IMG/VR virus record: IMGVR_UViG_3300037459_000263
Coordinates: 1-20,118 of that record
Length of the DNA: 20,118 nucleotides
Source of the DNA: a virus
Strand: one strand, 5' to 3'
Below are positions 7,360 through 19,930 of this stretch, one piece after another (position 1 is the first letter of the stretch; every line of letters begins with the position of its first letter). A model generated the notes under the pieces. It saw nothing but the letters and a program-made list of their open reading frames with translations. It had not been told where the DNA came from and made no database searches. A program made the position numbers and the translations under genes.

Positions 7360-7599
7360 TCATCCTAACAAGTCTTGCGTCAAGAAGAATAGGCTGGCCC
7401 ACTCGCGCCAGTCGTCGAAGTCGTACGGCACCGGAGCGTCCCTGCCCACCTCGTCGGGGTCGCCGACCAGGTTCATGGCCCAGTCCTGCCACTTGTCCGG
7501 GTCCCGCAGCTTCTGCATCGTACCAGTCCCAACCTCGAAGAACTGGTTCATGTTGTCTGTCCAGTCGAGGACGTCCATGTAGTACGGATTCAGTATCAT
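7360..7599 (-). CDS. Small conserved phage protein, function unknown (79 aa)
   Basis: This short gene starts at the ATG at 7599, which overlaps the stop of the nozzle gene in an ATGA, and ends four bases before the next start. A much longer open frame covers it but only the last 79 codons are likely to be real; the upstream part lies antiparallel to nothing and out of frame within the nozzle gene. The protein is acidic and has no signal peptide or membrane segment. It shows two similar tryptophan patches, DKWQDWAMNL (residues 36-45) and DDWREWASLF (residues 62-71), suggesting a small internal duplication. Similar small W-rich proteins sit between nozzle and ejection genes in environmental podoviruses. 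A role in the virion or its assembly is inferred from position only. Confidence 0.75.
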   Translation of the reverse strand: MILNPYYMDVLDWTDNMNQFFEVGTGTMQKLRDPDKWQDWAMNLVGDPDEVGRDAPVPYDFDDWREWASLFFLTQDLLG

Positions 7600-9149
7600 G
7601 ACTCCGTCCTCTCCCCGGCGACGTCCAGGTGCGCCAGCGTCTCGCCGAATTCGTAGTCGCCCCCAACCACGTTGGAGGTGAACTTGAAGCTCATGAGCCT
7701 GCGGATCGTCTTCAGCTTGATGGTCTCGTCCGTGCTCTCCGCCGGGGTCTCGAGGAACGTCTGCGCGGCGTCCTCCACGAACGGCGCCTTGGAGTTCACC
7801 CGGCCGCGCACGTTCAGCGTCATGTCTTTGGACTGCACGAAGTCCGGCTCCATCCTGGCGATCCTCAGCTCCATGTTGCTCGGCTGCTGCTGGTCGACAG
7901 GCATGCCGATCTCCGCCGTCTCGAAGAACGACTCTATCGCCACGATGCTGGAGCCGTCGATCTGATCTACTCCAGTCTCGTGCTGCCAGAGCGTGAACGC
8001 GTCTTCGGTTGGAGCGCCGACGTCGTCCGCGTCTACCAGGAACGGCTTGTTGTACACCCGCGCGTAGATCCCGGCGGTCCTGCCGGGTACGTTCCCCGGG
8101 CTGCGCTCGGTGGGCAGCTCCGTGTCGTACCAGGACCCCTCCTTCACATTGAAGATGATGGCGTGGGTGCACTCCGTCGCGCCGCCCCTCGGGTAGCACC
8201 ACCATATCTCGTGGAACCTGGGGACCTTGAACGCGAACACCTTCTGCCGCTCGCTGAAGTTTAGGTTGTCGAAGAAGAAGTTTATGTTGAAGTCGTTCGG
8301 CACGTCGCGCACGACGCCGTTGAACATGAGCCACCTGTCCACCCCAGGCCAGAAGAACGTGCCGTCGTACTCGATGACTGACTGGCTGGACAGTATGCTG
8401 ACGTCTGAGGCGAGCGTGTCGAACTGCCACACCGTGGTGCCGCCTACGAACGACGCGCGTATGAGCGCGTCTAGGGACCAGAATATGCCGGCAGGACCCT
8501 GGCCCGCTCCGCGGAGTGGGTGGCCGGCGACTATCTTCTGCTGCGTGATGAACGCCTCTATGTCGACGGTCGTGGGGTCGTTGACCGCCGACCAGCCGAT
8601 CTGTCCGCTGTTGCCGAAGAAGAACAGGAACGGGCCGAGCGTCACGATCCCGCCGCTGAACTCCTTCGTGGGTCCGGGGTTCGACAGCGCCTCCGTCAGG
8701 ATCGCGGAGTCGACCGCGGCCCCCAGGTAGGCCGGGGTCTCGAACGTGTTGTCTATGTTGACGAGGTTCCTACCGGGGTGCGCGATCACGTCCGTCGTAG
8801 CTGTGACCCCGTCGAAGAAGTGATCGAACTGCCAGAGGGCCTGCGGGTCTGAGAACCCCACCGGCGTCCTGTCGTTCTGCGCGCTGAGCGAGCCGCTGCC
8901 GGTCACGATGTACTGGCTGAGGTTGCTCGCGCCGCCTATGTGCAGGTAGCGCAGGCCGTTGGCGCTGAAGCTGGTCATGCCCCTGGCGAGCTCGGGGACC
9001 GTGCTGGTCACGGCCTGGTAGCCGCCGATCTTGCGGGGACGCCCGCGCTGGAACCGACACCACTGCCCGTCGGTGTAGCTATCTCCCTCCAACACCGTGC
9101 CGTCCCGCTTGATGCCGGGGGCAGAGCTGATTTTGACTGGGCTCGTCAT
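7596..9149 (-). CDS. Tail nozzle / packaged-DNA stabilisation protein, P22 gp10-like (517 aa)
   Basis: The N-terminus (GIKRDGTVLEGDSYTDGQW then CRF-RG-PRKIGGY) is a hallmark of the gp10-like tail protein of environmental podoviruses. Its length is close to that of P22 gp10 (about 470 residues). The rest is beta-rich with repeated short hydrophobic strands and conserved-looking stretches such as 'NSGQIGWSAVNDPT' and 'FFWPGVDRWLMFNG', as expected of a beta-propeller hub. In the P22 family this protein sits below the gp4 adaptor, closes the channel after packaging and carries the fibres. The start overlaps the preceding 125-residue gene by one base (TAATG) and no good Shine-Dalgarno is seen, so translational coupling is likely. 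Its GC content (about 63% in a counted line) contrasts with the fibre region upstream. Confidence 0.85.
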   Translation of the reverse strand: MTSPVKISSAPGIKRDGTVLEGDSYTDGQWCRFQRGRPRKIGGYQAVTSTVPELARGMTSFSANGLRYLHIGGASNLSQYIVTGSGSLSAQNDRTPVGFSDPQALWQFDHFFDGVTATTDVIAHPGRNLVNIDNTFETPAYLGAAVDSAILTEALSNPGPTKEFSGGIVTLGPFLFFFGNSGQIGWSAVNDPTTVDIEAFITQQKIVAGHPLRGAGQGPAGIFWSLDALIRASFVGGTTVWQFDTLASDVSILSSQSVIEYDGTFFWPGVDRWLMFNGVVRDVPNDFNINFFFDNLNFSERQKVFAFKVPRFHEIWWCYPRGGATECTHAIIFNVKEGSWYDTELPTERSPGNVPGRTAGIYARVYNKPFLVDADDVGAPTEDAFTLWQHETGVDQIDGSSIVAIESFFETAEIGMPVDQQQPSNMELRIARMEPDFVQSKDMTLNVRGRVNSKAPFVEDAAQTFLETPAESTDETIKLKTIRRLMSFKFTSNVVGGDYEFGETLAHLDVAGERTES

Positions 9150-9526
9150 TACGGGCTCGCTATCTCGTCACGGATCGCAGTCCGCAGTTGGTCGAACGTA
9201 CGAGGAGGAAGACCTTCGATGGCTCGCAAGATATTCAACTCGTTCATTATCAATTTAGCGAATGCTCTAAGAACTTCGCGGTCGTCGAACTCAGCTTGTT
9301 GTCTTGCAACTTTCACACCTGTTTCTTTCACTGCCCACGCTGCATCTCTCGCCACTTGGTTCGCGGTATAATCTGCGAACGCCGCATCGAGATCCGTCTG
9401 ACTAACATCGTGCACTTCAAGTTCATCAGTCGTTTCGTGGTGCGAGACGTTTTCCAGCCCCGACGAACCTGCCAGATCAGCAATCGCCGCGAAATTGTGA
9501 GCACTTGTTACAATAACTCTAGCCAT
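9149..9526 (-). CDS. Fibre-associated 125-aa protein, copy B (function unknown)
   Basis: I recognise this as the kind of small protein that often follows fibre genes in environmental podoviruses, but no function is known to me. The N-terminal half is polar with 'DLDAAFADY', and the C-terminal half is helical and ends with ELNILRAIEGLPPRT then Q-R-AIRDEI. A second gene in this window (14650-15027) has the same length and the same C-terminal signature, so the two are paralogues, and each lies directly downstream of a tail fibre gene. A role as fibre chaperone, attachment or tip protein is inferred from that pairing only. The ATG at 9526 has AAGGA six bases upstream; the gap after the fibre is 12 bases. 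The stop overlaps the nozzle start. GC is lower than in the nozzle gene. Confidence 0.85.
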   Translation of the reverse strand: MARVIVTSAHNFAAIADLAGSSGLENVSHHETTDELEVHDVSQTDLDAAFADYTANQVARDAAWAVKETGVKVARQQAEFDDREVLRAFAKLIMNELNILRAIEGLPPRTFDQLRTAIRDEIASP

Positions 9527-9538
9527 CGTATTTCCTTC

Positions 9539-11836
9539 TTATGAAGTATCAACGCAAAGGAACATCCAGTCACGATCTACGTTGCCTCCGCCTCCGCCTT
9601 GACCCATGTCTGGATTACCAAGTTGGACTATAAAAGAGTTAGTAAACCGATTTAGTACCGAGCCCATGATCATCCCGCTTGGACCATTGGCGGTTCCTAT
9701 ACCCGTTACTACGATGTGAAGATCCTTTATATCTGATAGACCAAGACTGTGAACTACCGAGTAAGTACCTAGACCGGTTCTAGACGCCGACCAGCCGGCC
9801 GGTAAAACATTTCCAAAACCAAAGTTATCTACGAATCCAGAAAAGACGATCGTTCCTCCACCACCGAGATCTGCCGTGGTCAGTACTCGCTCGAATCCCG
9901 CTCCGGTGTTTTGGTTGTTAGCCTGAGCGCCACCTTGTGCAGGAGTCCGCGTCCTGAAGACTTCCACTCCCTCATCAAACAGTGCGACGTCGTTGTCCGG
10001 ATTACCTTGAAGAATATTCCGTAGTACGCCGCCGGCATCTTCAGCTTGGAGTTCTACATTTCCGCCATGAATTTCATTTCTTATTAGCAGAATATCGTCG
10101 CCTATATATCCTATTCGCCCACGATCCGACAGGTCCTGATGATCAAACACTAATTGACGATCTTCGGTGTCGGTATTGCCATCACTTCTTACGGCAATCT
10201 TGCCGAGTGACTGTGCTTCAAAACGACAGATGCCTGCGGCGAATAACTCTGTGATCCCATCGGGATCACCTCTAACAAGTAGGTTGGTTACACCAACAGC
10301 ATTTTCGGCAGATATTGTGACAAGACCACCGTGCAAGAGGTTTGCAATTATAAGCTCGATTGAAGCGGTAGGCTGACCGATCAGCACCGCCGGGGTTCCG
10401 TCTGAGTGGGCGAACTCAAGCAGACGAACCTCTGCGTCCACGTTGCCGTCACTCCGCAACTGCGCGACGCCGAGGAGCTCAGCCCTCACGCGCACGTTGG
10501 CGGCGGTGTCTACCAGTTGAGTAGGAGGATCTGCCGCTCCGACAAGATCTTCAATCGTCGCCTTCTTTATGGCGTCAGAGTCGTCGATGTCTTGGAACGT
10601 CACGAAGTCTAAAATTTCAGGAACTTCTGTCGGTATGCTGGCGTAGTCGAGGTTGTGCGTCCTGTCACTGCTGAGGTCGCCCCCTCCGGTTATTCCGACG
10701 CCGGTGTCGATCAGTCGCGTGAGTGGAGGCACACCGAGGTTCGTCCTGGCCCCAGGCGCGGTAGTCGCACCCGTGCCGCCCTGGGCGATAGTGATGGGGA
10801 AGGTGACGGTGCTGGATTCAGCGTCCAGCACGTCGGTCCCGTCGCAGTACAGGATCGCTCGGGTGTCCTGCGGAATCTCGACGGGGAGGGCCTGGCCCGC
10901 TACTTGGACAAACAGGGAGAACGCGCCCGTCGTGGAGTTGTCCACCCAGTATTCTTGGATCGTGCTGGGGACGATTATGTTCCTGTCGCCGGTCAGCGAA
11001 CCGATGAACCGATACGACACGCGATCGAGCTGGACGCCGGACAGCACGAAGTCGCCGGAGCCGGAGACGTCTATCTCAGTGAAGTCGAAGCCGGTGTCCA
11101 GCGACGAGGTCAGTCCGATAGTGAACCAGTCTGTGCCGTCCGTCACGAACGTGCCAGACACGCCCGGGTTCAGCATCAGACTCCCGCCGTCGTCGATGAC
11201 GCCTGACGGGGTTGTCACCGTCAGCACGCCGGATCCGTCGTTCCTTATGTAGGTGAACCAGTCAGAGCCGACGACCCCAGGGTCTGGCAGGTTGAAAGTG
11301 CCGACGCCGGCGTTCCAGATGTTCAGCTGCGCGCGGTCCGCGTCGTCTAGGTTCAGAGGCGTCTGTCCTGCGCCGATCAGCGTGGGCGGGATGGTCTGGT
11401 TCAGCGTCGTGCTGATTGCCTTCAGGCCTGCCCCCGCGAGCGCGGACGCGTTCGCCACCGACACCGTCGCGCCGAGTTGGAACGTCCTCCACACTCCGGC
11501 CGCAGTGCTGTTGTCCGTCAGGTAGATGAACCACGCCTCGCCGCCGGCGAGCGAGATGATCGTGCCACCGCCGCTGTCTCTTATCGTGACAGTGTTAGAT
11601 CCTATGTTCGTGAACAGAGTCGTGTACCCGGTGGACACCTGGCGGGCGTCGTCGAAGTCGACGTTGAGCCCAGGCTGCGTGGCGTCAATATCGATGATGT
11701 CCACCGCGACGTCGTCGCCGCCGATCTGCTGCTCCACCGGCCACTGGAGCTGGATGTCACCGCTGATTGTCAGTTCCAGGTAGGTCTTCTGTGCGGGGTT
11801 GATGGACCCGCCGCCGAATACCTCGTTGTAGGTCAT
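9539..11836 (-). CDS. Tail fibre protein 2 (765 aa)
   Basis: The first 140 residues (MTYNEVFGGGSINPAQKTY, later 'GGEAWFIYLTD') resemble the conserved virion-anchoring region of environmental podovirus fibres. Two or three beta-repeats follow, each with 'DGTDWF' or 'DGTDVL' near its end (to about residue 340). Next comes ITIAQGGTGATT and TNLG, the classic phage fibre motif, and 'ITGGGDLSSDRTHNLD'. Residues 458-630 are a tandem duplication of about 85 residues. A linker with 'TGAGFERVLTTADL' is shared with the other fibre. The tip has 'LPAGWSASRTGLGTYSV' and a Gly-rich segment before a final DWMFLCVDTS. I infer a receptor-binding fibre attached to the nozzle or adaptor. GC drops sharply near 10,380, so the distal 280 residues look exchanged. 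The ATG at 11836 is one base after the adaptor stop, with GGGAG upstream. Confidence 0.85.
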   Translation of the reverse strand: MTYNEVFGGGSINPAQKTYLELTISGDIQLQWPVEQQIGGDDVAVDIIDIDATQPGLNVDFDDARQVSTGYTTLFTNIGSNTVTIRDSGGGTIISLAGGEAWFIYLTDNSTAAGVWRTFQLGATVSVANASALAGAGLKAISTTLNQTIPPTLIGAGQTPLNLDDADRAQLNIWNAGVGTFNLPDPGVVGSDWFTYIRNDGSGVLTVTTPSGVIDDGGSLMLNPGVSGTFVTDGTDWFTIGLTSSLDTGFDFTEIDVSGSGDFVLSGVQLDRVSYRFIGSLTGDRNIIVPSTIQEYWVDNSTTGAFSLFVQVAGQALPVEIPQDTRAILYCDGTDVLDAESSTVTFPITIAQGGTGATTAPGARTNLGVPPLTRLIDTGVGITGGGDLSSDRTHNLDYASIPTEVPEILDFVTFQDIDDSDAIKKATIEDLVGAADPPTQLVDTAANVRVRAELLGVAQLRSDGNVDAEVRLLEFAHSDGTPAVLIGQPTASIELIIANLLHGGLVTISAENAVGVTNLLVRGDPDGITELFAAGICRFEAQSLGKIAVRSDGNTDTEDRQLVFDHQDLSDRGRIGYIGDDILLIRNEIHGGNVELQAEDAGGVLRNILQGNPDNDVALFDEGVEVFRTRTPAQGGAQANNQNTGAGFERVLTTADLGGGGTIVFSGFVDNFGFGNVLPAGWSASRTGLGTYSVVHSLGLSDIKDLHIVVTGIGTANGPSGMIMGSVLNRFTNSFIVQLGNPDMGQGGGGGNVDRDWMFLCVDTS
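9947..10465 (-). repeat. Tandem duplication of an 85-residue module in fibre 2
   Basis: Two adjacent coding copies, 10211-10465 (85 codons) and 9947-10198 (84 codons), share the pattern RSDGN-D-E-R-L-F-H-D, a later HGG-V, then AE-A-GV and G-PD with LF--G. The copies are similar at protein level but diverged at DNA level, so the duplication is old or came from separate modules. The copies differ in GC around 10,380. Confidence 0.75.
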
Positions 11837-11837
11837 G

Positions 11838-12482
11838 TCACGCTCCCTTTCTCGTAGAAGCCCTATCTAGGATCTTCTGTATGTCTTCGCCGTTCAGCAG
11901 CCCCAGGTCACGATCGTACGTGGCCTGCCACGTCGGTATCCGTTTGTCGTTCACCAAGAACCTCGTCGCCTGGAGCAGCGCCCCGTGGAGCAGCGCGTTC
12001 GGAGCGAAGTCTGACGTCCAGTTCGTCTGGTTCGTGTCGTCCAGCAGCGCCGGCAGTTGCCAGTACAGGACCTCGAACGGGTACTCGAAGTCCGGCGTCG
12101 GGCTGAACAGCCAGTTGAAGTAGTCGTAGTCCGCGTAGAACCTGGGCTGCTCCCTCAGGTCCTCGTCCGGCCAGTAGAGCCTGTTGTACTCGTAAGAACG
12201 TGGGAACAGAGGGGTTCTCACCTGCTCTGCCCCCACGCCGAAGTTCATGCTGACCGTCTCTCTCCAGCGGTCCGGCTTCTGATAGACTGACGTGCCCGCA
12301 GCCATCGTGCTGGTGACGACGTTGATGAATCCCTGTATCTTCAGAGCTCGAGCTATGTCGCGCTCGGCCAGGTTGATCAACCTGGGGAGCTGTTCGAACA
12401 CCGTCGGGTCGACGGACGTCCCACGCTCCAGGTAGTCTCTGAGATCGTCCTGCAGAGAATCAAATGTCATCGCGGTCGGCAT
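11838..12482 (-). CDS. Head-tail adaptor-like protein, SU10 adaptor type (214 aa)
   Basis: The protein begins with a helical region containing 'FDSLQDDLRDYLERG' and 'LPRLINLAERDIARAL', then a beta-rich middle, then the signature VLYWQLPALLDDTNQTNW and 'APNALLHGALLQATRFL', ending with WQATYDRDL. I recognise this combination from phage adaptor proteins of the type described for phage SU10. That family forms a ring between portal and nozzle. It would thus be the second connector-like protein of this window, beside the 358-residue gp4-like protein. ATG at 12482 is preceded by AGGAG with a six-base spacer; that sequence lies across the stop of the previous gene, three bases upstream. The family assignment is from memory of the signature. 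Confidence 0.7.
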   Translation of the reverse strand: MPTAMTFDSLQDDLRDYLERGTSVDPTVFEQLPRLINLAERDIARALKIQGFINVVTSTMAAGTSVYQKPDRWRETVSMNFGVGAEQVRTPLFPRSYEYNRLYWPDEDLREQPRFYADYDYFNWLFSPTPDFEYPFEVLYWQLPALLDDTNQTNWTSDFAPNALLHGALLQATRFLVNDKRIPTWQATYDRDLGLLNGEDIQKILDRASTRKGA

Positions 12483-12485
12483 GTT

Positions 12486-12835
<350 letters not shown>

Positions 12836-12839
<4 letters not shown>

Positions 12840-13249
12840 TGGTCAGCTCCTCTGACAGCGGATATTAGGTTGGCGATCAAAGGCCTCGCGCGCTCGACCC
12901 AGCCGTTCAGCTCGTTCATGACTCGGACGAATCTGTCCTCACCTCTGCCGCTGGCCTCGAACTCTACCCTGATCACTGTGAACTCTAGCGTAGCATCCAG
13001 CAGGGAGTCAGCCACAGGCTTGGCCTGCGCGTCTGCCCTGGCTATCGCGCGCACGGCGCTGTCTGGGATGCTGCCGCTGGAGACTAGCTTGGCGGCCTGC
13101 TCCTCTATGATGACGAACGTGCCGTACGTGGCGAACGCCCTCTGCTCCGTCGTCTCCGCCCTATCTATGGGGTCTGTTATCGCGCACGCCTGCAGCGCGA
13201 GTACGACCACAGCCAGGTAGAACGACTGCCATGATGGTATAGGTTTCAT
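12836..13249 (-). CDS. Phage lipoprotein in lysis cassette (137 aa)
   Basis: The N-terminus is a short charged start, a hydrophobic stretch (YLAVVVLALQAC) and a lipobox LQAC with Cys at residue 22, so export and lipidation are expected. After cleavage the mature protein would be about 116 residues, helical and mixed in charge, with no catalytic motif visible. Similar small lipoproteins ('CA-TDP...' followed by a helical domain) accompany holin genes in many environmental phages. A role as outer-membrane spanin is possible, but the mature part is longer and less Pro-rich than classic o-spanins, and I do not claim it. The start overlaps the preceding membrane protein by four bases (ATGA at 13246-13249) and the stop overlaps the next gene in the same way. 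Confidence 0.82.
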
Positions 13250-13479
13250 CCTACTGTACCTCCTCCGTCGCCCGATCCTGTGACTCTGTTCACCAGGCGT
13301 CGGGCGGAAATCGCCTGGAAGTCTTTACCGAATGTGATCGCGCCACCGACCAGCAGTATGGTCCACTGAAGCCCAGAGATGTCACCCAAAGAGGTGACGC
13401 TCTCCCCACTCAGCAGAGCCAGTGCCGCTGTCAGCACGGCGATCATAGTCGCGATGAATGCTCCGATTATCGTGTTCAT
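13246..13479 (-). CDS. Putative holin (77 aa, two membrane segments)
   Basis: This very small protein has a first hydrophobic segment at about residues 4-24 (IIGAFIATMIAVLTAALALL), a short polar loop, a second at about 36-52 (GLQWTILLVGGAITFG), then a basic region (SARRLVNRV) and a Gly-rich tail. Two membrane helices, tiny size, charged C-terminus and position in a run of lysis-type genes fit a class II holin, which would make holes in the inner membrane at the end of infection. The C-terminal 'KDFQAISARRLVNRVTGSGD' resembles holin-like genes of other environmental phages. ATG at 13479, ten bases after the DUF5675 gene. Function is inferred; topology is not tested. Confidence 0.72.
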   Translation of the reverse strand: MNTIIGAFIATMIAVLTAALALLSGESVTSLGDISGLQWTILLVGGAITFGKDFQAISARRLVNRVTGSGDGGGTVG

Positions 13480-13489
13480 ACTCTCCCTC

Positions 13490-13969
13490 CTACTTCGCCC
13501 CGTACTTGGGACGTATTGTCAATCTGTGCGTGCTCTCCATGCCCAGCTGCTCCCGCAGGATCTTCATCGCATCGCCGCTGCTCGAGACCGACCTCTCGTA
13601 GTTCCCTGACTTGCGGTTCTTCATGATAGCGCGCAGCAACCCGGGCGCAATGCAGCCGACGACGTCGCTGACGTAGTTCGCGACATGGATCAAGACCAGG
13701 TACCGTCCGACGCCGTGAGGCCTGTCCTCCTTGAGCCTGTACACCCCCAGCTCGGGGTTCGACAGGATGTACACCTCACCCCTGTTCGGCCTGGTCCAGG
13801 GCTCGAGTATGTACCTGCCGTCCGGTACACAGGACTGGAACGGCTTTCCTCCAGCATCATCCCAATGCACCCACGGACGTTCAATAGTAGCCAGATCGAA
13901 ATCAGCAACACTAAGAACACCCTCAGTCTCCGTGGACGCATAGCTGAACCTGTCGAGCGTGAGTTCCAT
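13490..13969 (-). CDS. DUF5675 family protein, possible cell-wall-acting lysis protein (159 aa)
   Basis: The sequence fits DUF5675: an N-terminal region with TLDRFSY and 'LATIERPWVHWDD', then 'CVPDGRYILEPW', then the family core LIHVANYVSDVVGCIAPG with His95, Gly105 and Cys106, and a final SSSGDAMKIL-like block. The paired His and Cys before a Gly resemble the layout of L,D-transpeptidase-type (YkuD) active sites. That comparison is my inference, as the family has no assigned function that I know. DUF5675 genes often occur in phage lysis cassettes. Here it lies between two membrane-protein genes and is the only enzyme-like candidate in the cassette. Its ATG overlaps the previous stop by one base (TGATG). 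Confidence 0.78.
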   Translation of the reverse strand: MELTLDRFSYASTETEGVLSVADFDLATIERPWVHWDDAGGKPFQSCVPDGRYILEPWTRPNRGEVYILSNPELGVYRLKEDRPHGVGRYLVLIHVANYVSDVVGCIAPGLLRAIMKNRKSGNYERSVSSSGDAMKILREQLGMESTHRLTIRPKYGAK

Positions 13970-14349
13970 CAGCTCGTGTCTGTGTCCGCCTGGAGTGCGG
14001 TCTTCGCTTCCTCCAGAGCATCCATCTGAATCTCCAAGTCTGCCAGATACGACGCATCCTCAGCGGTCCAGTCGTCGACCGGGGGGTTATCCCTGCGAAA
14101 CCTCAGCGCCGCCATCTCCTTCCTCGTGGCGTTGATGTCTCTCTGCAAGAGGGCGACGAACGCGTTGTTGATCGGATCCACCTGCGTCGCGACCGTCTGC
14201 TTGATCGACTCCTGCATCTCCTCGGCCAGCGCGTCCACCAGTATGGGCTGGAGGATGAACCAGAAGATGGGCACGAGGCCAGCGTAGGTGACGATCTGGT
14301 TGACACCTATGCGGATCCCCGCCTCTTTGACCTCTGCCTTGCTCGCCAT
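13969..14349 (-). CDS. Membrane-anchored helical protein, lysis cassette (126 aa)
   Basis: An N-terminal charged segment leads into one hydrophobic helix at about residues 19-39 (IVTYAGLVPIFWFILQPILV). A long helical region follows, ending in an acidic coiled-coil-like stretch (YLADLEIQMDALEEAKTALQ). Single anchor plus helical body resembles an inner-membrane spanin or a one-helix holin, but no specific family is recognised. Its neighbours (DUF5675 protein, two-helix holin candidate, lipoprotein) support a lysis or envelope role. The start at 14349 is one base after the previous stop, and its own stop overlaps the next ATG. Confidence 0.75.
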   Translation of the reverse strand: MASKAEVKEAGIRIGVNQIVTYAGLVPIFWFILQPILVDALAEEMQESIKQTVATQVDPINNAFVALLQRDINATRKEMAALRFRRDNPPVDDWTAEDASYLADLEIQMDALEEAKTALQADTDTS

Positions 14350-14350
14350 A

Positions 14351-14638
14351 TCACTTCTCCGCTTGTTTCCCAGTGTCTACGGTCTTCAGGTCTGGCTTCT
14401 TCTCACCGTCTCCCTCCGGTGGAGTTTCGCTGCCTTCCGCCTTCTTGGTCGGCGCGTTCACGACAAGCACCTGGCCGCTCGCGATGGCGGTCAGCAGGGA
14501 ATTCAGCGCCCCTATAATTCCACTGACGGCCATCGGACCCGGCACGTTGACCGCTCCCTGAGTCTGCAACAGCTGTGCTCCCGCGGCTGCGGCTTTCTGT
14601 GTCTGTTCGTGACTGAGATTTATCGTTTGCTGGTCCAC
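14351..14638 (-). CDS. Small hypothetical protein, GTG start (95 aa)
   Basis: Function not recognised. The initiation codon is GTG at 14638, supported by AAGAGGA with a six-base spacer. The N-terminal half is Ala-rich and probably helical (SHEQTQKAAAAGAQLL), the middle is mildly hydrophobic (MAVSGIIGALNSLLTAIASG), and the last 30 residues are Lys-, Pro- and Glu-rich and likely disordered. GC rises here to about 63% in a counted line, so it marks the end of the lower-GC fibre region. It is the first gene of the lysis-like run. Confidence 0.72.
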   Translation of the reverse strand: MDQQTINLSHEQTQKAAAAGAQLLQTQGAVNVPGPMAVSGIIGALNSLLTAIASGQVLVVNAPTKKAEGSETPPEGDGEKKPDLKTVDTGKQAEK

Positions 14639-14644
14639 TGTATT

Positions 14645-14651
14645 TCCTCTT
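14645..14651 (-). promoter_or_regulatory. Ribosome binding site for the GTG-started 95-aa gene
   Basis: AAGAGGA on the minus strand overlaps the TAA stop of the preceding gene and lies six bases before the GTG. A very similar leader (AAGAAGGAAATACG before ATG) precedes the 125-residue copy B gene at 9526. Confidence 0.7.
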
Positions 14652-15027
14652 ATAGGTTATCTATCTTGGTACGGATCGCCGAACGAGCTTGCGCTATCGT
14701 CCGGTCGGGTAAGCCCTCTATTGTTCTGAGTATGTTCAGCTCGTCGATCAGCAGTTCAACGACTGCCCTCCAGAGACGTTTGTTGTCATACAAATCCTTA
14801 TCGAAATCTCTACCAGCCGTATTTCTCGCTGCCTGAGTCGCGGCGTCGATGTTCGTCTGGTCGGCTACGTAATCAGCGAACGCCGTGTCGAGAGTCGCTT
14901 GATCAGCACTCTCGCATTCCAACTCGCTACTGTCTGGATGCCAGATGTTGAGGAACGGATCGGCCGCCGCCAGCTCCGCGATCTTTACCCAGTCGTGGGA
15001 GAGGGTCGCTATTATTTTGAATCCCAT
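14650..15027 (-). CDS. Fibre-associated 125-aa protein, copy A (function unknown)
   Basis: This is the paralogue of the protein at 9149-9526, with identical length. Shared features are an N-terminal beta-like start, a D-FADY block in the middle (LDTAFADY here, LDAAFADY there) and the C-terminal signature ELNILRTIEGLPDRT with AIRTKI. The N-terminal third is diverged. The gene lies directly behind fibre 1; its ATG overlaps the fibre stop by one base (TAATG) and AGAGG sits eight bases upstream. A counted line within it has 47% GC, below the 63% of the next gene. Role unknown. Pairing with fibres suggests assembly, attachment or receptor contact, which is inference. Confidence 0.85.
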   Translation of the reverse strand: MGFKIIATLSHDWVKIAELAAADPFLNIWHPDSSELECESADQATLDTAFADYVADQTNIDAATQAARNTAGRDFDKDLYDNKRLWRAVVELLIDELNILRTIEGLPDRTIAQARSAIRTKIDNL

Positions 15028-18000
15028 TACAGTAACCTCTTAGCGGTGACGGTGACTTCTTCGGCGGTGAATATCCCGGTTCCACCTGTCTCTATTTTCA
15101 TCAGTTGCAGCGTCAAGAAATCGCCTGCTGCCAGCACGACAATGAATGAACACTGCAAGCGGCCAAAGACTTCATTACCAATAGTCGACGCATCCTCATA
15201 CGCAGTTTGAGACGCGAGTGATCCTGGGAGATCAACCCCTGCGTCATTCAAACGCATCCGACCGAAAGCCTGTATATTATCGTTGCCTGCGGCAGAGGGA
15301 TCGATGTCTGCGCCATAAGTGAATTCGTAGGTTCCCGCCACCGTAGCTTCAATCTGGTCGGTGGTGCCGCTATGTTCGAGGATCGCGCCGTCTGTCTCGA
15401 TGTCAGTCGTATCCAACGTGACATCTGCGAATGCTGTAGTTAAAACGTATGAAGTCGTGCGTCGAGCCTGCACCGCGTCGTTCGCAACACCGAGTTTGAA
15501 ATCAATCCCGGTGTCATCCGTGAACATCGGGATGTTCGGTACGTCATCACGCACCCAGAACTGTCCCAGTCCTGCAAAGTCAGCGTTGGCAGCCGTCTTC
15601 TCTGTGATGTAGATGCTCTCGTCGAATTTGTAGCCGACGCTCACACCAGTGAAGTTCAGGTCTGCGGTCAACGTGGAAACGATATTGCCGTCTGTACCAT
15701 CGTGATCAATTACTACTGAATCAGTAGCAACTGCATCAAGAACGATGAGTCGATTGCCTCCAGCAACTGTGATGTCACCTGCGACTACGACGTTATTGTC
15801 GAATGAGTATTGGGTAGCGACTCCGGTAAAGTTCAGTGCTGTTGAACCGACCGAAGCAATAGTTCCGGCTGCTCCATTGTGACTGATAGATACGGAGTCA
15901 GCCAGACTAGCATCGCGGATCGAAAGTACTCCTGCCGCTGTGACTTGGATCTGCGTTTCTTCAATAAATGACGCGCCATCAAACCGAAGCATTGAATTCG
16001 TAACAGTTCCGGAGATACCCGGTGAAGGACCATCGTTGTAGAGCGTATCCCAGTCTGTAGAATCGCGACCTAAGAAAATTCCAATTTCTCCAGCCGCGAT
16101 TGTTATCGCCGTATCCACTCCAGCACCAAAATCATCACCAGACGCCGGAAACAACTGAAGATCGTTGACTCCGTTATTGATAACGACGAGCCGTTCACCA
16201 GCATCAACATCGAAAGCTGTCAGCGCGTCACCTACATTCGCAACTGTCGTAATCTCATTGTATGAACTGAGCAGTGCGAGTCCGCCTGCTTGGGTCTGTG
16301 TAACACTTGCGACCAGTGCGACCTGATTCTCATTCCTCTGGATGATGTGACTGGCATCTTCCGCGAACCGTACTCCCTCAATACCGCCAGCCGCTAAGGT
16401 AACTATGTCTATGCCGCCCCAACCCATTCCGGTATTAGTATCGCCATTAGCGGCTAAGACAGAAGGAAAGTTTGCCGTAGCACCGACACTTACAATCTTT
16501 CCACTGTTTCCGATGAATCCAGTAATGCCGGACGTATCTACAACGATGCGTGTGATGCCGTTAACTGAAAACCCAAGAAAATCCTCTGCGAGTCTGAACA
16601 TTCCCAAGTCTGTCTCACCAGAGAAACTATACGATGGAGCGCCAGCCGTTCCATCTGGAGCTAAGAGTGGGAACGAAATTCCGCTCGCAGCGTTATTAAA
16701 AAGAGTATCCCAATTCGTAGAGTCTCGGCCGAGGAATATCCCGATCTCCCCCGCTCTGATTGTGATCGCCGTGTCGACCCCCGCACCAAAGTCATCACCG
16801 ACAGCGGGGAATAACTGAAGATCATTCGCTCCGTTGTTGACAATGGTAAGGCGAGAACCCTCTAGAACTGGGAATGCTGTGAGGGCATCACCTGAGTTAG
16901 CGACAGTCGCAATTTCGTTGTAAGAACTGAGTAGCGCAAGACCTCCAGCTTGCGTCTGAGTGACGCTTGCAACTAATCCAGTTCCGCTGGCGTTTATCTG
17001 AGTTATTCCAAACCCTGATTCCGCGTACCGAACCGCCAGAATAGTACCTGCGACGAGCGCGATAGTGTCGTCCACAGTCTGCATGACGCCAGTGTCACCA
17101 TCACCGAACCCAAGATCTGGAGCAACAACATTGTTCTGAACGGCTCCGGGAGCAACAACGAATTGATTGGCTCCGGGATCTCCGACAGCCTGGGCGATCG
17201 TCACCGCCCCGGCCGACAGGCCCAAGATGTCAGCGCCTACGCGGAACATGCCGATGTCGGTGTCAGAAGCGAAACTGTACGACGGGGCGGGCGCTGAACC
17301 ATCTGAGAGCAACAGAGGATCAGGAAGAGTAACTAAATCAGATGCTGTCAAGACACGTTCCAATCCCGCACCTGTCAACGTGTTGTTGGCTAACAGTCCG
17401 CCTGACGCAGGAGCGACTCCCCTCGCAAGTTCAATGCCACCACCGATGAGCGACGGTTCGTTGAGCGCATTACTTCCAAGACCCGTATCTGAATCTGATC
17501 TTCTTGGAACGAATACTGGATTCGTAGCAGACGGTACTTCGTTCACCATAGCAGGGCCGGTCCCCGTCTCTGCATTGAACGAATCTAACTCCCAGAAAAA
17601 CCTAAAGACGCCAGCCACCGACACCTTGAAGTTGTCGTCAAGCGGCTCGGAGAATCCCGTGTCACCGTCGCCGAAAGCAAGTGATGGAGTCGCGGCAGCA
17701 TTCTGTGTCACCCCCGGAGCGATGATGAACTGATTCGCACCGACAGATTCTTTAGCCTGTGCAATCTGTACTCCACCAGCGACTAACGACAGTTCGTCAC
17801 TACCGTCGCGACCTAGGCCGGTATTAGAATCTCCCTGATCAGGCAAGACGGTGGGGACGTCACCTTGCGATATGATATTCTCGAGCGACGGCCCGTTGCT
17901 GAACTGTGAAAAGAACCTCGCAGTGGAGAAGTTCCACGCACGACTGCCTCCGCCGATCCAGACAACCTGATTAGAACCAGTCCACCTAAATCCAGTGTCA

Positions 18001-18485
18001 AGGTCTCCGAGAGAAGTAAGATCAGGGACTGATGATTGGCCCGACTGAGCTATCGCGAATTGATTCTGGGCTCCGTTGATCGCGCGAGCGATCTCCACGC
18101 CATCCGCTGCGAAACTTAGCTCGCCTACTGCGTTTAGATACATCCCGCTGTCGGGGTCGCTGGCGAAGCTGTAGGACGGTGCGCCGACGGAGCCGTCTGG
18201 AGCCAGCAGCGGGAACGAAAGACCAGCCGCGTTGATCGTCAGCGTGCCGTTCGGTCCGGTGTCGACGAGCGTGATGTTAGTCCCCTCGGTCAGCACCCTC
18301 TCATTCGGCAGAGCCGCGTTCGGATCGACCGTGATGAATGACGCATCCAGGCCGGAAGCGGACGAAGCGATGTCAGCTACAGTTGTTCGGGTACTATTAC
18401 CATCCGCGTTTTCTAACTCCATCAACTCGTCCCCGACGAGGGGGAGAGCGTTCGGTGGAAGGTCGATGATCTTTATGCCTGCCAT
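15027..18485 (-). CDS. Tail fibre protein 1 with C1q/TNF-like tip (1152 aa)
   Basis: The N-terminus (GIKIIDLPPNALPLVGDELM, then STRTTVADIA and ALPNERVLTEGTNITLVD) matches the anchoring region of environmental podovirus fibres. The shaft is built of repeats: 'APSYSFASDPDSGMY' near residue 102 with variants near 399 and 615; GD-DTG repeats between them; a 95-residue module present twice (residues 504-598 and 724-818); and two tandem copies of a unit with LNFTGV near residues 860-960. The linker 'TGAGLERVLTASDL' is shared with fibre 2. Residues 1005-1152 (TTSYVLTTAFADVTL, later TYEFTYGADI, ending in VTVTAKRLL) look like a C1q/TNF-type jelly-roll, a common receptor-binding tip. No autoproteolytic chaperone domain is visible. 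ATG at 18485 is one base past the previous stop. GC is mixed, about 47-57% with richer islets. Confidence 0.85.
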   Translation of the reverse strand: MAGIKIIDLPPNALPLVGDELMELENADGNSTRTTVADIASSASGLDASFITVDPNAALPNERVLTEGTNITLVDTGPNGTLTINAAGLSFPLLAPDGSVGAPSYSFASDPDSGMYLNAVGELSFAADGVEIARAINGAQNQFAIAQSGQSSVPDLTSLGDLDTGFRWTGSNQVVWIGGGSRAWNFSTARFFSQFSNGPSLENIISQGDVPTVLPDQGDSNTGLGRDGSDELSLVAGGVQIAQAKESVGANQFIIAPGVTQNAAATPSLAFGDGDTGFSEPLDDNFKVSVAGVFRFFWELDSFNAETGTGPAMVNEVPSATNPVFVPRRSDSDTGLGSNALNEPSLIGGGIELARGVAPASGGLLANNTLTGAGLERVLTASDLVTLPDPLLLSDGSAPAPSYSFASDTDIGMFRVGADILGLSAGAVTIAQAVGDPGANQFVVAPGAVQNNVVAPDLGFGDGDTGVMQTVDDTIALVAGTILAVRYAESGFGITQINASGTGLVASVTQTQAGGLALLSSYNEIATVANSGDALTAFPVLEGSRLTIVNNGANDLQLFPAVGDDFGAGVDTAITIRAGEIGIFLGRDSTNWDTLFNNAASGISFPLLAPDGTAGAPSYSFSGETDLGMFRLAEDFLGFSVNGITRIVVDTSGITGFIGNSGKIVSVGATANFPSVLAANGDTNTGMGWGGIDIVTLAAGGIEGVRFAEDASHIIQRNENQVALVASVTQTQAGGLALLSSYNEITTVANVGDALTAFDVDAGERLVVINNGVNDLQLFPASGDDFGAGVDTAITIAAGEIGIFLGRDSTDWDTLYNDGPSPGISGTVTNSMLRFDGASFIEETQIQVTAAGVLSIRDASLADSVSISHNGAAGTIASVGSTALNFTGVATQYSFDNNVVVAGDITVAGGNRLIVLDAVATDSVVIDHDGTDGNIVSTLTADLNFTGVSVGYKFDESIYITEKTAANADFAGLGQFWVRDDVPNIPMFTDDTGIDFKLGVANDAVQARRTTSYVLTTAFADVTLDTTDIETDGAILEHSGTTDQIEATVAGTYEFTYGADIDPSAAGNDNIQAFGRMRLNDAGVDLPGSLASQTAYEDASTIGNEVFGRLQCSFIVVLAAGDFLTLQLMKIETGGTGIFTAEEVTVTAKRLL
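16032..16316 (-). repeat. 95-codon module in fibre 1, copy 2
   Basis: This encodes residues 724-818 and matches the copy at 16692-16976 over its full length, with about 80 of 95 residues identical by eye. Both begin LVASVTQTQAGGLALLSSYN and contain 'DDFGAGVDTAITI' and 'GEIGIFLGRDST'. Differences cluster in the middle (after LTAF). Confidence 0.88.
16692..16976 (-). repeat. 95-codon module in fibre 1, copy 1
   Basis: This encodes residues 504-598, the partner of 16032-16316, offset by exactly 660 bases. The segment between the copies holds another PSYSF unit, so the duplicated block may be a larger shaft segment of about 220 residues. Confidence 0.88.
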
Positions 18486-18853: not shown

Positions 18854-18860
18854 TCACCTC
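18854..18860 (-). promoter_or_regulatory. Ribosome binding site for the GTG-started 120-aa gene
   Basis: GAGGTGA on the minus strand, whose last three bases are the TGA stop of the connector gene. A four-base spacer leads to GTG at 18849. It decides the start of a gene that has no ATG at this position. Confidence 0.65.
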
Positions 18861-19930
18861 GTGTACACCGAGATCCTGGGCGCGAGCCTCACGGGCGCGC
18901 CGTCGTCCTCGCCGGTCCACGCGTCCTTCATCTCCCTCGCGGCGTCCATGTCTAGCATCTGTATGCGGGAGATGTCTGCCTCCGGTATCTCGCGGACCAG
19001 GTCCTTCGCCAGGTCGGCGATGACGGCCTTGTACCACCGCTGCGGCACCTCGATCTCCTGGAGCATCGTACCGACGTCCTGGATCTGTCGCTTGACGTAC
19101 AGCACGTACTGGAAGAACGTGAACTCCGTGTCTGGGATGGGCCAGATGGTCAGGATGTTCTGCCCACCCTGCGCCGCGGCCTGCTTGTCGTACCAGTACT
19201 CAGTCGGCCTGGAGAGGAACGTCTTGTCCGGCAGGTCGCTGTACGTATCGCGGCTGACCTTCGGCATAGGTATCTCGTTGCCCCTGTTGCCGAGGAAGAA
19301 CTCGGCGACGTCCAACACCGTGGTGCCGTTCGCCTGCAGCCGGATGAACTGGAACGGGATCTGCTGCTCCAGGTCTATCCATATCCAATCTCCGGCGATG
19401 GCGGCGAGCTCCGTGTCGGTGAACAGGTCGGTGAACGTGATGCCGTCCTGCGACCCCTGGATCGAGATGTCCCAGGTCGCGGTGGCGTTGAAGAAGATTC
19501 CGTAGTTGTCCACCTGGACCTGGTTGCCTGAGCCGAAAGTCGTCTGGATGAATCCCCCGGGCGTGGTCTGCGTGGTCGCCGTGTCCAGGTCGCTGTCGAA
19601 GGCGGCGTCCGCGTCGCCCTCGCTGGCGGAGTTCGTCTCGCCGAGCGTCCGCTGCAGGTCGCGGAGGTTCATGTTGAGCATGTCCACCGTGCCGACCGGC
19701 AGCGGCACCGATCGCTCGCCCCTGTATACGGGCAGGATGACCTTCTCGATCGTCCACATCGGGATGCCGTAGCTCGCCAGGGCGGACAGGTTGAGGAACA
19801 GCAGGTCGAGCGCCGTTTCTATGTCCTCCGGCGTGATCTGCTGTGGCTTCATCTTGCACTTGCGGAAGGCGTGGTCTATCACCTTCTGCGTCTCGAAGAC
19901 TGTCTGTCCTACTGTTCCGCTGGTCGCCAT
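18854..19930 (-). CDS. Head-tail connector protein, P22 gp4-like, with inserted binding-like domain (358 aa)
   Basis: Residues 1-95 are helical (KVIDHAFRKCKMKPQQITPE, 'LNLSALASYGIPMW', then RGERSVPLPVGTVDMLNM) and resemble the gp4-type connector fold. The C-terminal third has the family signature 'SRDTYSDLPDKTFLSRPTEY', 'LTIWPIPDTE', IQDVGTML and IEVPQRWYKAVIADLA. Between them, about residues 120-215, lies a beta-rich segment (FIQTTFGSG, 'WDISIQGSQDGITF', FQFIRLQANGTTV) that looks like a discoidin or galactose-binding-like domain. It is larger than P22 gp4 (166 residues), mainly because of this insert. The expected role is to join the portal to the nozzle after DNA packaging. The start ATG at 19930 directly follows a TAG at 19931-19933 in the same frame. 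Confidence 0.78.
   Translation of the reverse strand: MATSGTVGQTVFETQKVIDHAFRKCKMKPQQITPEDIETALDLLFLNLSALASYGIPMWTIEKVILPVYRGERSVPLPVGTVDMLNMNLRDLQRTLGETNSASEGDADAAFDSDLDTATTQTTPGGFIQTTFGSGNQVQVDNYGIFFNATATWDISIQGSQDGITFTDLFTDTELAAIAGDWIWIDLEQQIPFQFIRLQANGTTVLDVAEFFLGNRGNEIPMPKVSRDTYSDLPDKTFLSRPTEYWYDKQAAAQGGQNILTIWPIPDTEFTFFQYVLYVKRQIQDVGTMLQEIEVPQRWYKAVIADLAKDLVREIPEADISRIQMLDMDAAREMKDAWTGEDDGAPVRLAPRISVYTR

What the first reader, a model, noticed from the sequence alone, without database searches (positions are those of the whole stretch)
9149..18485. Two 'fibre plus 125-residue gene' units in one late operon
Seen: each of the two fibre genes is followed directly by a gene of exactly 125 codons, and the two share the C-terminal signature ELNILR-IEGLP-RT with AIR--I. 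Inferred: the pair is a duplicated functional unit, in which the small protein serves the fibre (chaperone, attachment or tip). Two fibre-partner sets suggest a phage able to bind more than one receptor or surface. I know of no described function for this small family.
Basis: partly seen in the sequence, partly recalled or inferred. Interest (0 to 1): 0.7.

Follow-up and report, generated by a model that had tools for sequence, protein, structure and literature searches.

The report
Two matched phage tail-fibre tip chaperones
Each of this virus's two tail fibres is followed by a small helper protein of a family with no database entry; across related viruses the helper's front half changes together with the fibre's tip while its back half is often kept, so it most likely helps that particular tip fold (or caps it).

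Summary
Two 125-residue genes, each directly behind a fibre gene on the minus strand, are full-length paralogues (40% identity, E 1e-27). Neither matches Pfam or PHROGs. Relatives in IMG/VR contigs, two Nitrosovibrio/Nitrosospira prophages and one isolate sit beside fibre or fibre-tip genes: 25 of 25 type-A units directly behind one, 16 of 19 type-B loci within 520 bp of a lectin-like (Laminin_G_3) tip gene. Each protein is a ~62-residue N-domain plus a ~50-residue helical C-body. The modules are shuffled: one C-body carries at least three unrelated N-domains, and one N-domain (type B) carries this C-body or DUF4376. DUF4376 proteins are experimentally shown intermolecular fibre chaperones (Alteromonas phage V22, Campylobacter CJIE1). 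In syntenic fibres the partner's N-domain changes when the tip changes, and the partner is missing in one phage whose fibre-2 tip is unrelated. Best reading: a new family of two-module, tip-specific fibre chaperones (possibly transient caps) working like Mu Tfa, DUF4376 and Pam3 gp25 proteins, two per phage because it has two fibres with different tips. Contact with the fibre was not modelled; no fold match to Tfa was found.

The parts
15027..18485 (-). Fibre 1 (1152 aa), tip family T1
   Evidence: PHROGs tail fiber 2e-8; tip alignment A10; anchor and shaft shared with relatives whose tips differ
14650..15027 (-). Partner 1 (125 aa), type A N-domain + helical C-body
   Evidence: 40% identical to partner 2; AF2 model mean pLDDT 92.5, pTM 0.67; TAATG coupling to fibre 1
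14842..15027 (-). Partner 1 N-domain (~residues 1-62), beta-alpha-beta-beta-alpha; proposed tip-binding module
   Evidence: Strands 3-6, 28-30, 35-38 and helices 13-19, 43-55; similarity tracks the tip
14653..14805 (-). Partner 1 helical C-body (last ~51 residues); proposed oligomerisation body
   Evidence: Found behind at least three unrelated N-domain types
9539..11836 (-). Fibre 2 (765 aa), tip family T2
   Evidence: PHROGs tail fiber 0.0083; tip alignment A11, weak match to solved tail protein gp13 9occ_G, E 0.0035
9149..9526 (-). Partner 2 (125 aa), type A N-domain + helical C-body
11838..12482 (-). SU10-type adaptor protein, conserved marker directly upstream of the slot-2 fibre
   Evidence: Pfam PF24175, 7.9e-26; a 214-aa gene holds the same place in relatives
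7596..9149 (-). 517-aa virion structural protein directly after partner 2; in L016 a 521-aa gene follows fibre 2 with no partner between
   Evidence: phrog_3287, 1e-33

Best explanation
Each 125-residue protein is an intermolecular chaperone (and perhaps transient cap) dedicated to the tip of the fibre encoded just upstream. Inferred mechanism: the N-domain recognises the C-terminal tip of its own fibre; the helical C-body brings copies together, probably as a trimer, so that three fibre chains are held in register and folding starts from the tip; the partner is then released or stays loosely as a cap. The phage carries two because it has two fibres with unrelated tips. Shown here: paralogy, family-wide fibre or tip-gene neighbourhood, two-domain predicted structure, shuffling of N- and C-modules, and exchange or absence of the partner when the tip differs. 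Inferred: physical contact, trimerisation, chaperone activity and release.
For: Adjacency: 25 of 25 type-A units with an upstream gene in view lie directly behind a fibre gene, and 16 of 19 type-B loci lie within 520 bp of a Laminin_G_3 tip gene, either upstream or downstream, against 0 of 26 type-A loci within 5 kb. Modularity: N-types A, B and C are unrelated to each other (hhalign probability 0.35-2.4%), yet carry one C-body; type B also carries DUF4376. Swaps: slot-1 fibres with the window's anchor but a different distal end have a type-B partner with the same C-body; L016 fibre 2 keeps residues 1-468 (45%) but has an unrelated distal part and no partner; L005 has a different tip and diverged N-domain but the same C-body; L006 and L016 keep tip and N-domain with another C-body. 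Numbers: tip~N given C r=0.66, p=1e-4; tip~C given N r=0.09, p=0.21; head~N given C r=0.29; the four tip labels need only the minimum three changes on the N-tree. Mechanistic precedent: V22 gp27 is required for fibre binding (PMC7289586); A5 gp9 co-elutes with its fibre (PMC10579305); a DUF4376 gene is needed by the CJIE1 H-fibre and DUF4376 is described as the conserved C-terminus of Tfa (PMC7882524); Pam3 gp25 has an N-terminal tip-binding domain (1-55) and a C-terminal helical trimerising domain in a 3:3 cryo-EM complex (PMC9608196). The AF2 model has the same layout.
Against: No Foldseek match with E<=0.001 in PDB or BFVD and no sequence match to solved Tfa or gp25. The C-body is not detectably related to DUF4376 (hhalign 4.6%). 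The tip/N-domain correlation could partly reflect physical linkage: the neighbouring fibre segment also correlates (0.55 given C), and the bootstrap gives only 0.90 for N exceeding C. On the same type-A rows the C-tree needs 4 label changes against 3 on the N-tree, a small difference. A5 fibres function without their DUF4376 partner (PMC10579305), so a strict chaperone need cannot be assumed. Trimerisation and fibre contact were not modelled. In seven type-B loci (L046, L051, L057, L059, L061, L062, L090) the partner precedes the tip genes and no long fibre gene was called just upstream.
Confidence: 0.72

Rival explanations
1. The small protein is a permanent part of the fibre tip, an adhesin or adhesin-carrying cap (as Mu Tfa remains bound and S16 gp38 sits on the tip), so host recognition needs both proteins in the virion.
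For: Same linkage data: the N-domain follows the tip. Mu Tfa stays on the fibre and S16 gp38 is a tip adhesin (PMC7289586; PMC10579305).
Against: The C-body is conserved and shared between unrelated tips, which suits a common assembly role better than receptor binding; Pam3 gp25 is absent from virions (PMC9608196). No data on virions here.
Confidence: 0.15
2. The protein anchors or connects the fibre to the tail (attachment factor).
For: Late-operon position next to fibre, adaptor and virion structural genes.
Against: It does not follow the fibre's N-terminal anchor: head~N given tip is 0.12; fibres with the same anchor have partners with unrelated N-domains or no partner.
Confidence: 0.05
3. 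Passenger gene: the association with tips is only linkage within a mobile host-recognition cassette, and the protein has an unrelated function.
For: Adjacent segments recombine together; fibre residues -200 to -100 also correlate with the N-domain (0.55 given C).
Against: Type-B N-domains keep company with Laminin_G_3 genes whichever side they lie on, in unrelated phages including a 469-kb jumbo phage; the crossover falls inside the small gene, between its two domains.
Confidence: 0.08

Closest known systems
DUF4376 tail-fibre chaperones (Alteromonas phage V22 gp27, A5 gp9; Campylobacter CJIE1 chaperone)
   Same: Encoded directly downstream of a fibre; N-terminal part facing the fibre tip plus a helical C-terminal body; type-B N-domain occurs fused to DUF4376 in Sinorhizobium phage Phosso (L044) and in L045
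   Different: The window's C-body is ~50 residues and has no detectable relation to DUF4376; whole protein 125 residues against 195-240
Tfa family (phage Mu gpU / Tfa)
   Same: Variable N-domain that follows the fibre C-terminus and a conserved C-terminal domain (as described in PMC7882524 and PMC9608196)
   Different: No Pfam match and no significant fold match
Pam3 gp25 chaperone
   Same: N-terminal small beta-containing domain of ~55 residues, then an all-helical domain; its fibre has a TNF-like domain (PMC9608196)
   Different: gp25 is at least 162 residues; no sequence similarity found
Intramolecular chaperone domains (T5 L-shaped fibre, K1F tailspike)
   Same: Helical body at the fibre tip that drives trimer folding (PMC10579305)
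   Different: Here a separate gene, so no autoproteolytic release; no sequence similarity found

Membership tests
Tfa / Caudo_TAP tail fibre assembly proteins | Sequence match to a curated tail-fibre assembly family model | tested here: not met
   No Pfam family at E<=1 for either window protein
Tfa / Caudo_TAP tail fibre assembly proteins | Gene directly downstream of a fibre gene | tested here: met
   25 of 25 type-A units
Tfa / Caudo_TAP tail fibre assembly proteins | Variable N-domain matched to the fibre tip, conserved C-terminal domain | tested here: met
   Shuffling and tip linkage, (indirect: by covariation, not by binding)
Tfa / Caudo_TAP tail fibre assembly proteins | Fold of Mu Tfa N-domain (5YVQ) | tested here: inconclusive
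   Not among Foldseek or VIA-align matches, which cannot exclude it
DUF4376 fibre chaperones | C-terminal DUF4376 domain | tested here: not met
   No Pfam hit in the window proteins; C-body against DUF4376 profile 4.6%
DUF4376 fibre chaperones | Shares an N-domain family with proteins that carry the window's C-body | tested here: met
   Type-B N-domain occurs with the window's C-body and with DUF4376; the window's own type-A N-domain has not been seen with DUF4376
Intermolecular fibre chaperones (functional class) | Fibre needs the partner for correct folding | not testable with these tools
   Needs co-expression
Intermolecular fibre chaperones (functional class) | Physical complex with the fibre tip | not testable with these tools
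   No multimer prediction offered

The most novel reading that the evidence does not exclude
A plug-in chaperone platform: one small helical body shared by several unrelated tip-reading domains across many phages, with crossovers inside the chaperone gene letting a phage swap fibre tip and matching reader while often keeping the body, and the partner staying on the tip as a cap that controls when the fibre can bind.
Probability: 0.3. Interest if true: 0.6.

Novelty: new variant of a known kind. Interest (0 to 1): 0.45.

Why it matters
It assigns a likely role to a family that Pfam and PHROGs lack and extends the known Tfa/DUF4376 principle (tip-specific N-module, common C-body) to a new body used by at least three N-modules. 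It gives a way to spot fibre tips and their helpers in metagenomic phages, and suggests why recombinant fibres from such phages may fail to fold unless the small downstream gene is co-expressed. The natural swaps make the idea testable: N-domain exchange should change which fibre is helped, C-body exchange should not.

Tried and rejected
Single-sequence tblastn of both window proteins and of the L029 member in 50,697 phage genomes found nothing; only the type-B branch reached an isolate, Phosso. Foldseek against PDB and BFVD gave no match with E<=0.001; VIA-align gave only middling matches of the N-domain (best Z 5.6, FMRP KH0 domain) and of helices: common small-domain arrangements, not used. 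A 'Tail fiber assembly protein' of Pantoea phage LIMEzero appears at E 0.97 for the type-B model: not significant. Profile searches of solved structures with the partners gave nothing. Tip family T3 matches GP-PDE domain protein 9eul/9euf at 1e-11 and T2 matches gp13 9occ_G at 0.0035; T1 none. A paper search for the GP-PDE structures found nothing relevant. The attachment-factor idea was rejected. A scan of 274 bacterial genomes of one class with the type-B profile found only the prophage already known. The C-domain-only scan also re-found earlier contigs; duplicates were removed by sequence.

Full report
What is there. The window is a phage late region, nearly all on the minus strand. Fibre 1 (15027-18485) is followed by partner 1 (14650-15027) with overlapping stop and start (TAATG), then lysis-type small genes, an SU10-type adaptor (11838-12482; Pfam 7.9e-26), fibre 2 (9539-11836), partner 2 (9149-9526; 12-nt gap and an AAGGA site) and a virion structural protein (7596-9149; phrog_3287, 1e-33). 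The two 125-residue partners are 40% identical over their whole length (E 1e-27; score 210 against a maximum of 67 in 2000 shuffles). They match no Pfam or PHROGs family significantly.

Family. Searches of IMG/VR with single sequences and profiles, of bacterial genomes and of isolate phages gave 42 distinct proteins that carry the C-terminal signature plus members with other C-terminal parts. AlphaFold2 models partner 1 with mean pLDDT 92.5 and pTM 0.67: a small N-domain (strands 3-6, 28-30, 35-38; helices 13-19, 43-55) followed only by helices (57-82, 84-103, 111-124). A type-B relative is also a beta-containing N-domain plus helices (mean pLDDT 84.6).

Modules are shuffled. One C-body ('DELNxLRxxxxLPxRTxAQLxTAIRxKI') is found behind at least three mutually unrelated N-domains: type A (window), type B ('VLNRxTKxF..WIINPDLSAV..KYWxIxGDxV') and type C (L092-L094), plus a different-looking one in L099. 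Profile comparison finds no relationship between N-types A, B and C (probability 0.35-2.4%), while the two type-A subgroups are clearly related (99%). Conversely type B carries this C-body, a version with a ~24-residue insert, or DUF4376; type A carries this C-body or unrelated or diverged ones (L016, L006). The C-body and DUF4376 show no relationship (4.6%).

Neighbours. All 25 type-A units with an upstream gene in view lie directly behind a fibre gene. Of 19 type-B loci, 16 lie within 520 bp of a Laminin_G_3 lectin-like tip gene, whether upstream or downstream; the other three (L059, L061, L062) are Nitrosospira-type prophages with another protein in that place; none of 26 type-A loci has such a gene within 5 kb of held sequence. 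The type-B/lectin pairing also occurs in the 469-kb Sinorhizobium phage Phosso. The L099 neighbour is a tail fibre by PHROGs (8e-41).

The partner follows the tip. Over 18 type-A units, identity of the fibre's last 130 residues correlates with the partner's N-domain given the C-body (r 0.66, p 1e-4) but not with the C-body given the N-domain (r 0.09, p 0.21). The signal fades towards the fibre's N-terminus. On the N-domain tree the four tip labels need three changes, the minimum; on the C-body tree four, and seven (minimum four) once the lectin-linked members are added. These statistics are modest (bootstrap 0.90 for N over C) and linkage contributes. The individual swaps weigh more. In slot 1, relatives with the window's fibre anchor (L043, 66% over residues 1-86) but another distal end plus lectin gene have a type-B partner with the same C-body. 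In slot 2, L016 keeps fibre residues 1-468 (45%) but has an unrelated distal part and no partner gene. L005 shares fibre 2 up to residue ~650 and the C-body, but has another tip and a diverged N-domain; L006 keeps tip and N-domain with a different C-body.

Known parallels. DUF4376 proteins include demonstrated fibre chaperones: V22 gp27 is required for functional fibres (PMC7289586); A5 gp9 binds its fibre, is not needed for its function, and is proposed as a transient cap (PMC10579305); the CJIE1 H-fibre needs its downstream DUF4376 gene, and DUF4376 is described there as the conserved C-terminus of Tfa, whose variable N-domain binds the fibre C-terminus (PMC7882524). Pam3 gp25 has an N-terminal domain (1-55) that grips the fibre tip and a helical C-terminal domain that trimerises, in a 3:3 cryo-EM complex (PMC9608196). 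The window proteins share the layout, gene position and N/C logic, but not detectable sequence, and no fold match was found.

Conclusion. The small proteins most likely are tip-specific intermolecular chaperones, possibly transient caps, one for each of two fibres with unrelated tips. They work like Tfa/DUF4376/gp25 proteins but are not shown to be members of those families. The partner genes are old paralogues; the fibres are not demonstrably duplicates, sharing one 49-residue module. Whether the phage recognises two receptors is plausible and untested.

Noticed in passing
window 13490-13969: DUF5675 protein (Pfam 4.2e-13) inside the small-gene cluster between the two fibre units, beside short membrane-type genes; probably part of the lysis region.
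   Followed up: no
window 12836-13249: 137-aa protein with a lipoprotein-like start (LALQAC), possibly a spanin component.
   Followed up: no
window 18854-19930: 358-aa protein with a weak discoidin-like (F5/8 type C) stretch at residues 101-202, E 0.0011, below Pfam's cut-off, upstream of fibre 1.
   Followed up: no
window 15027-18485 and 9539-11836: A 49-residue module (GG..ANN..TGAGFERVLT.ADL, 51% identical) is shared by the two otherwise different fibres and recurs in fibres of relatives.
   Followed up: partly
L092:3491-4678 and L099:3400-4758: Genes just upstream of partner genes start with signal-peptide-like sequences, unusual for phage fibres; the L099 one matches a PHROGs tail fibre at 8e-41.
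   Followed up: no
L046, L051, L057, L059, L061, L062, L090: The type-B partner lies before, not after, a ~160-aa gene (often MASGDxL...) and, in four of the seven, a Laminin_G_3 gene, with no long fibre gene called just upstream; gene order in this module is not fixed.
   Followed up: partly
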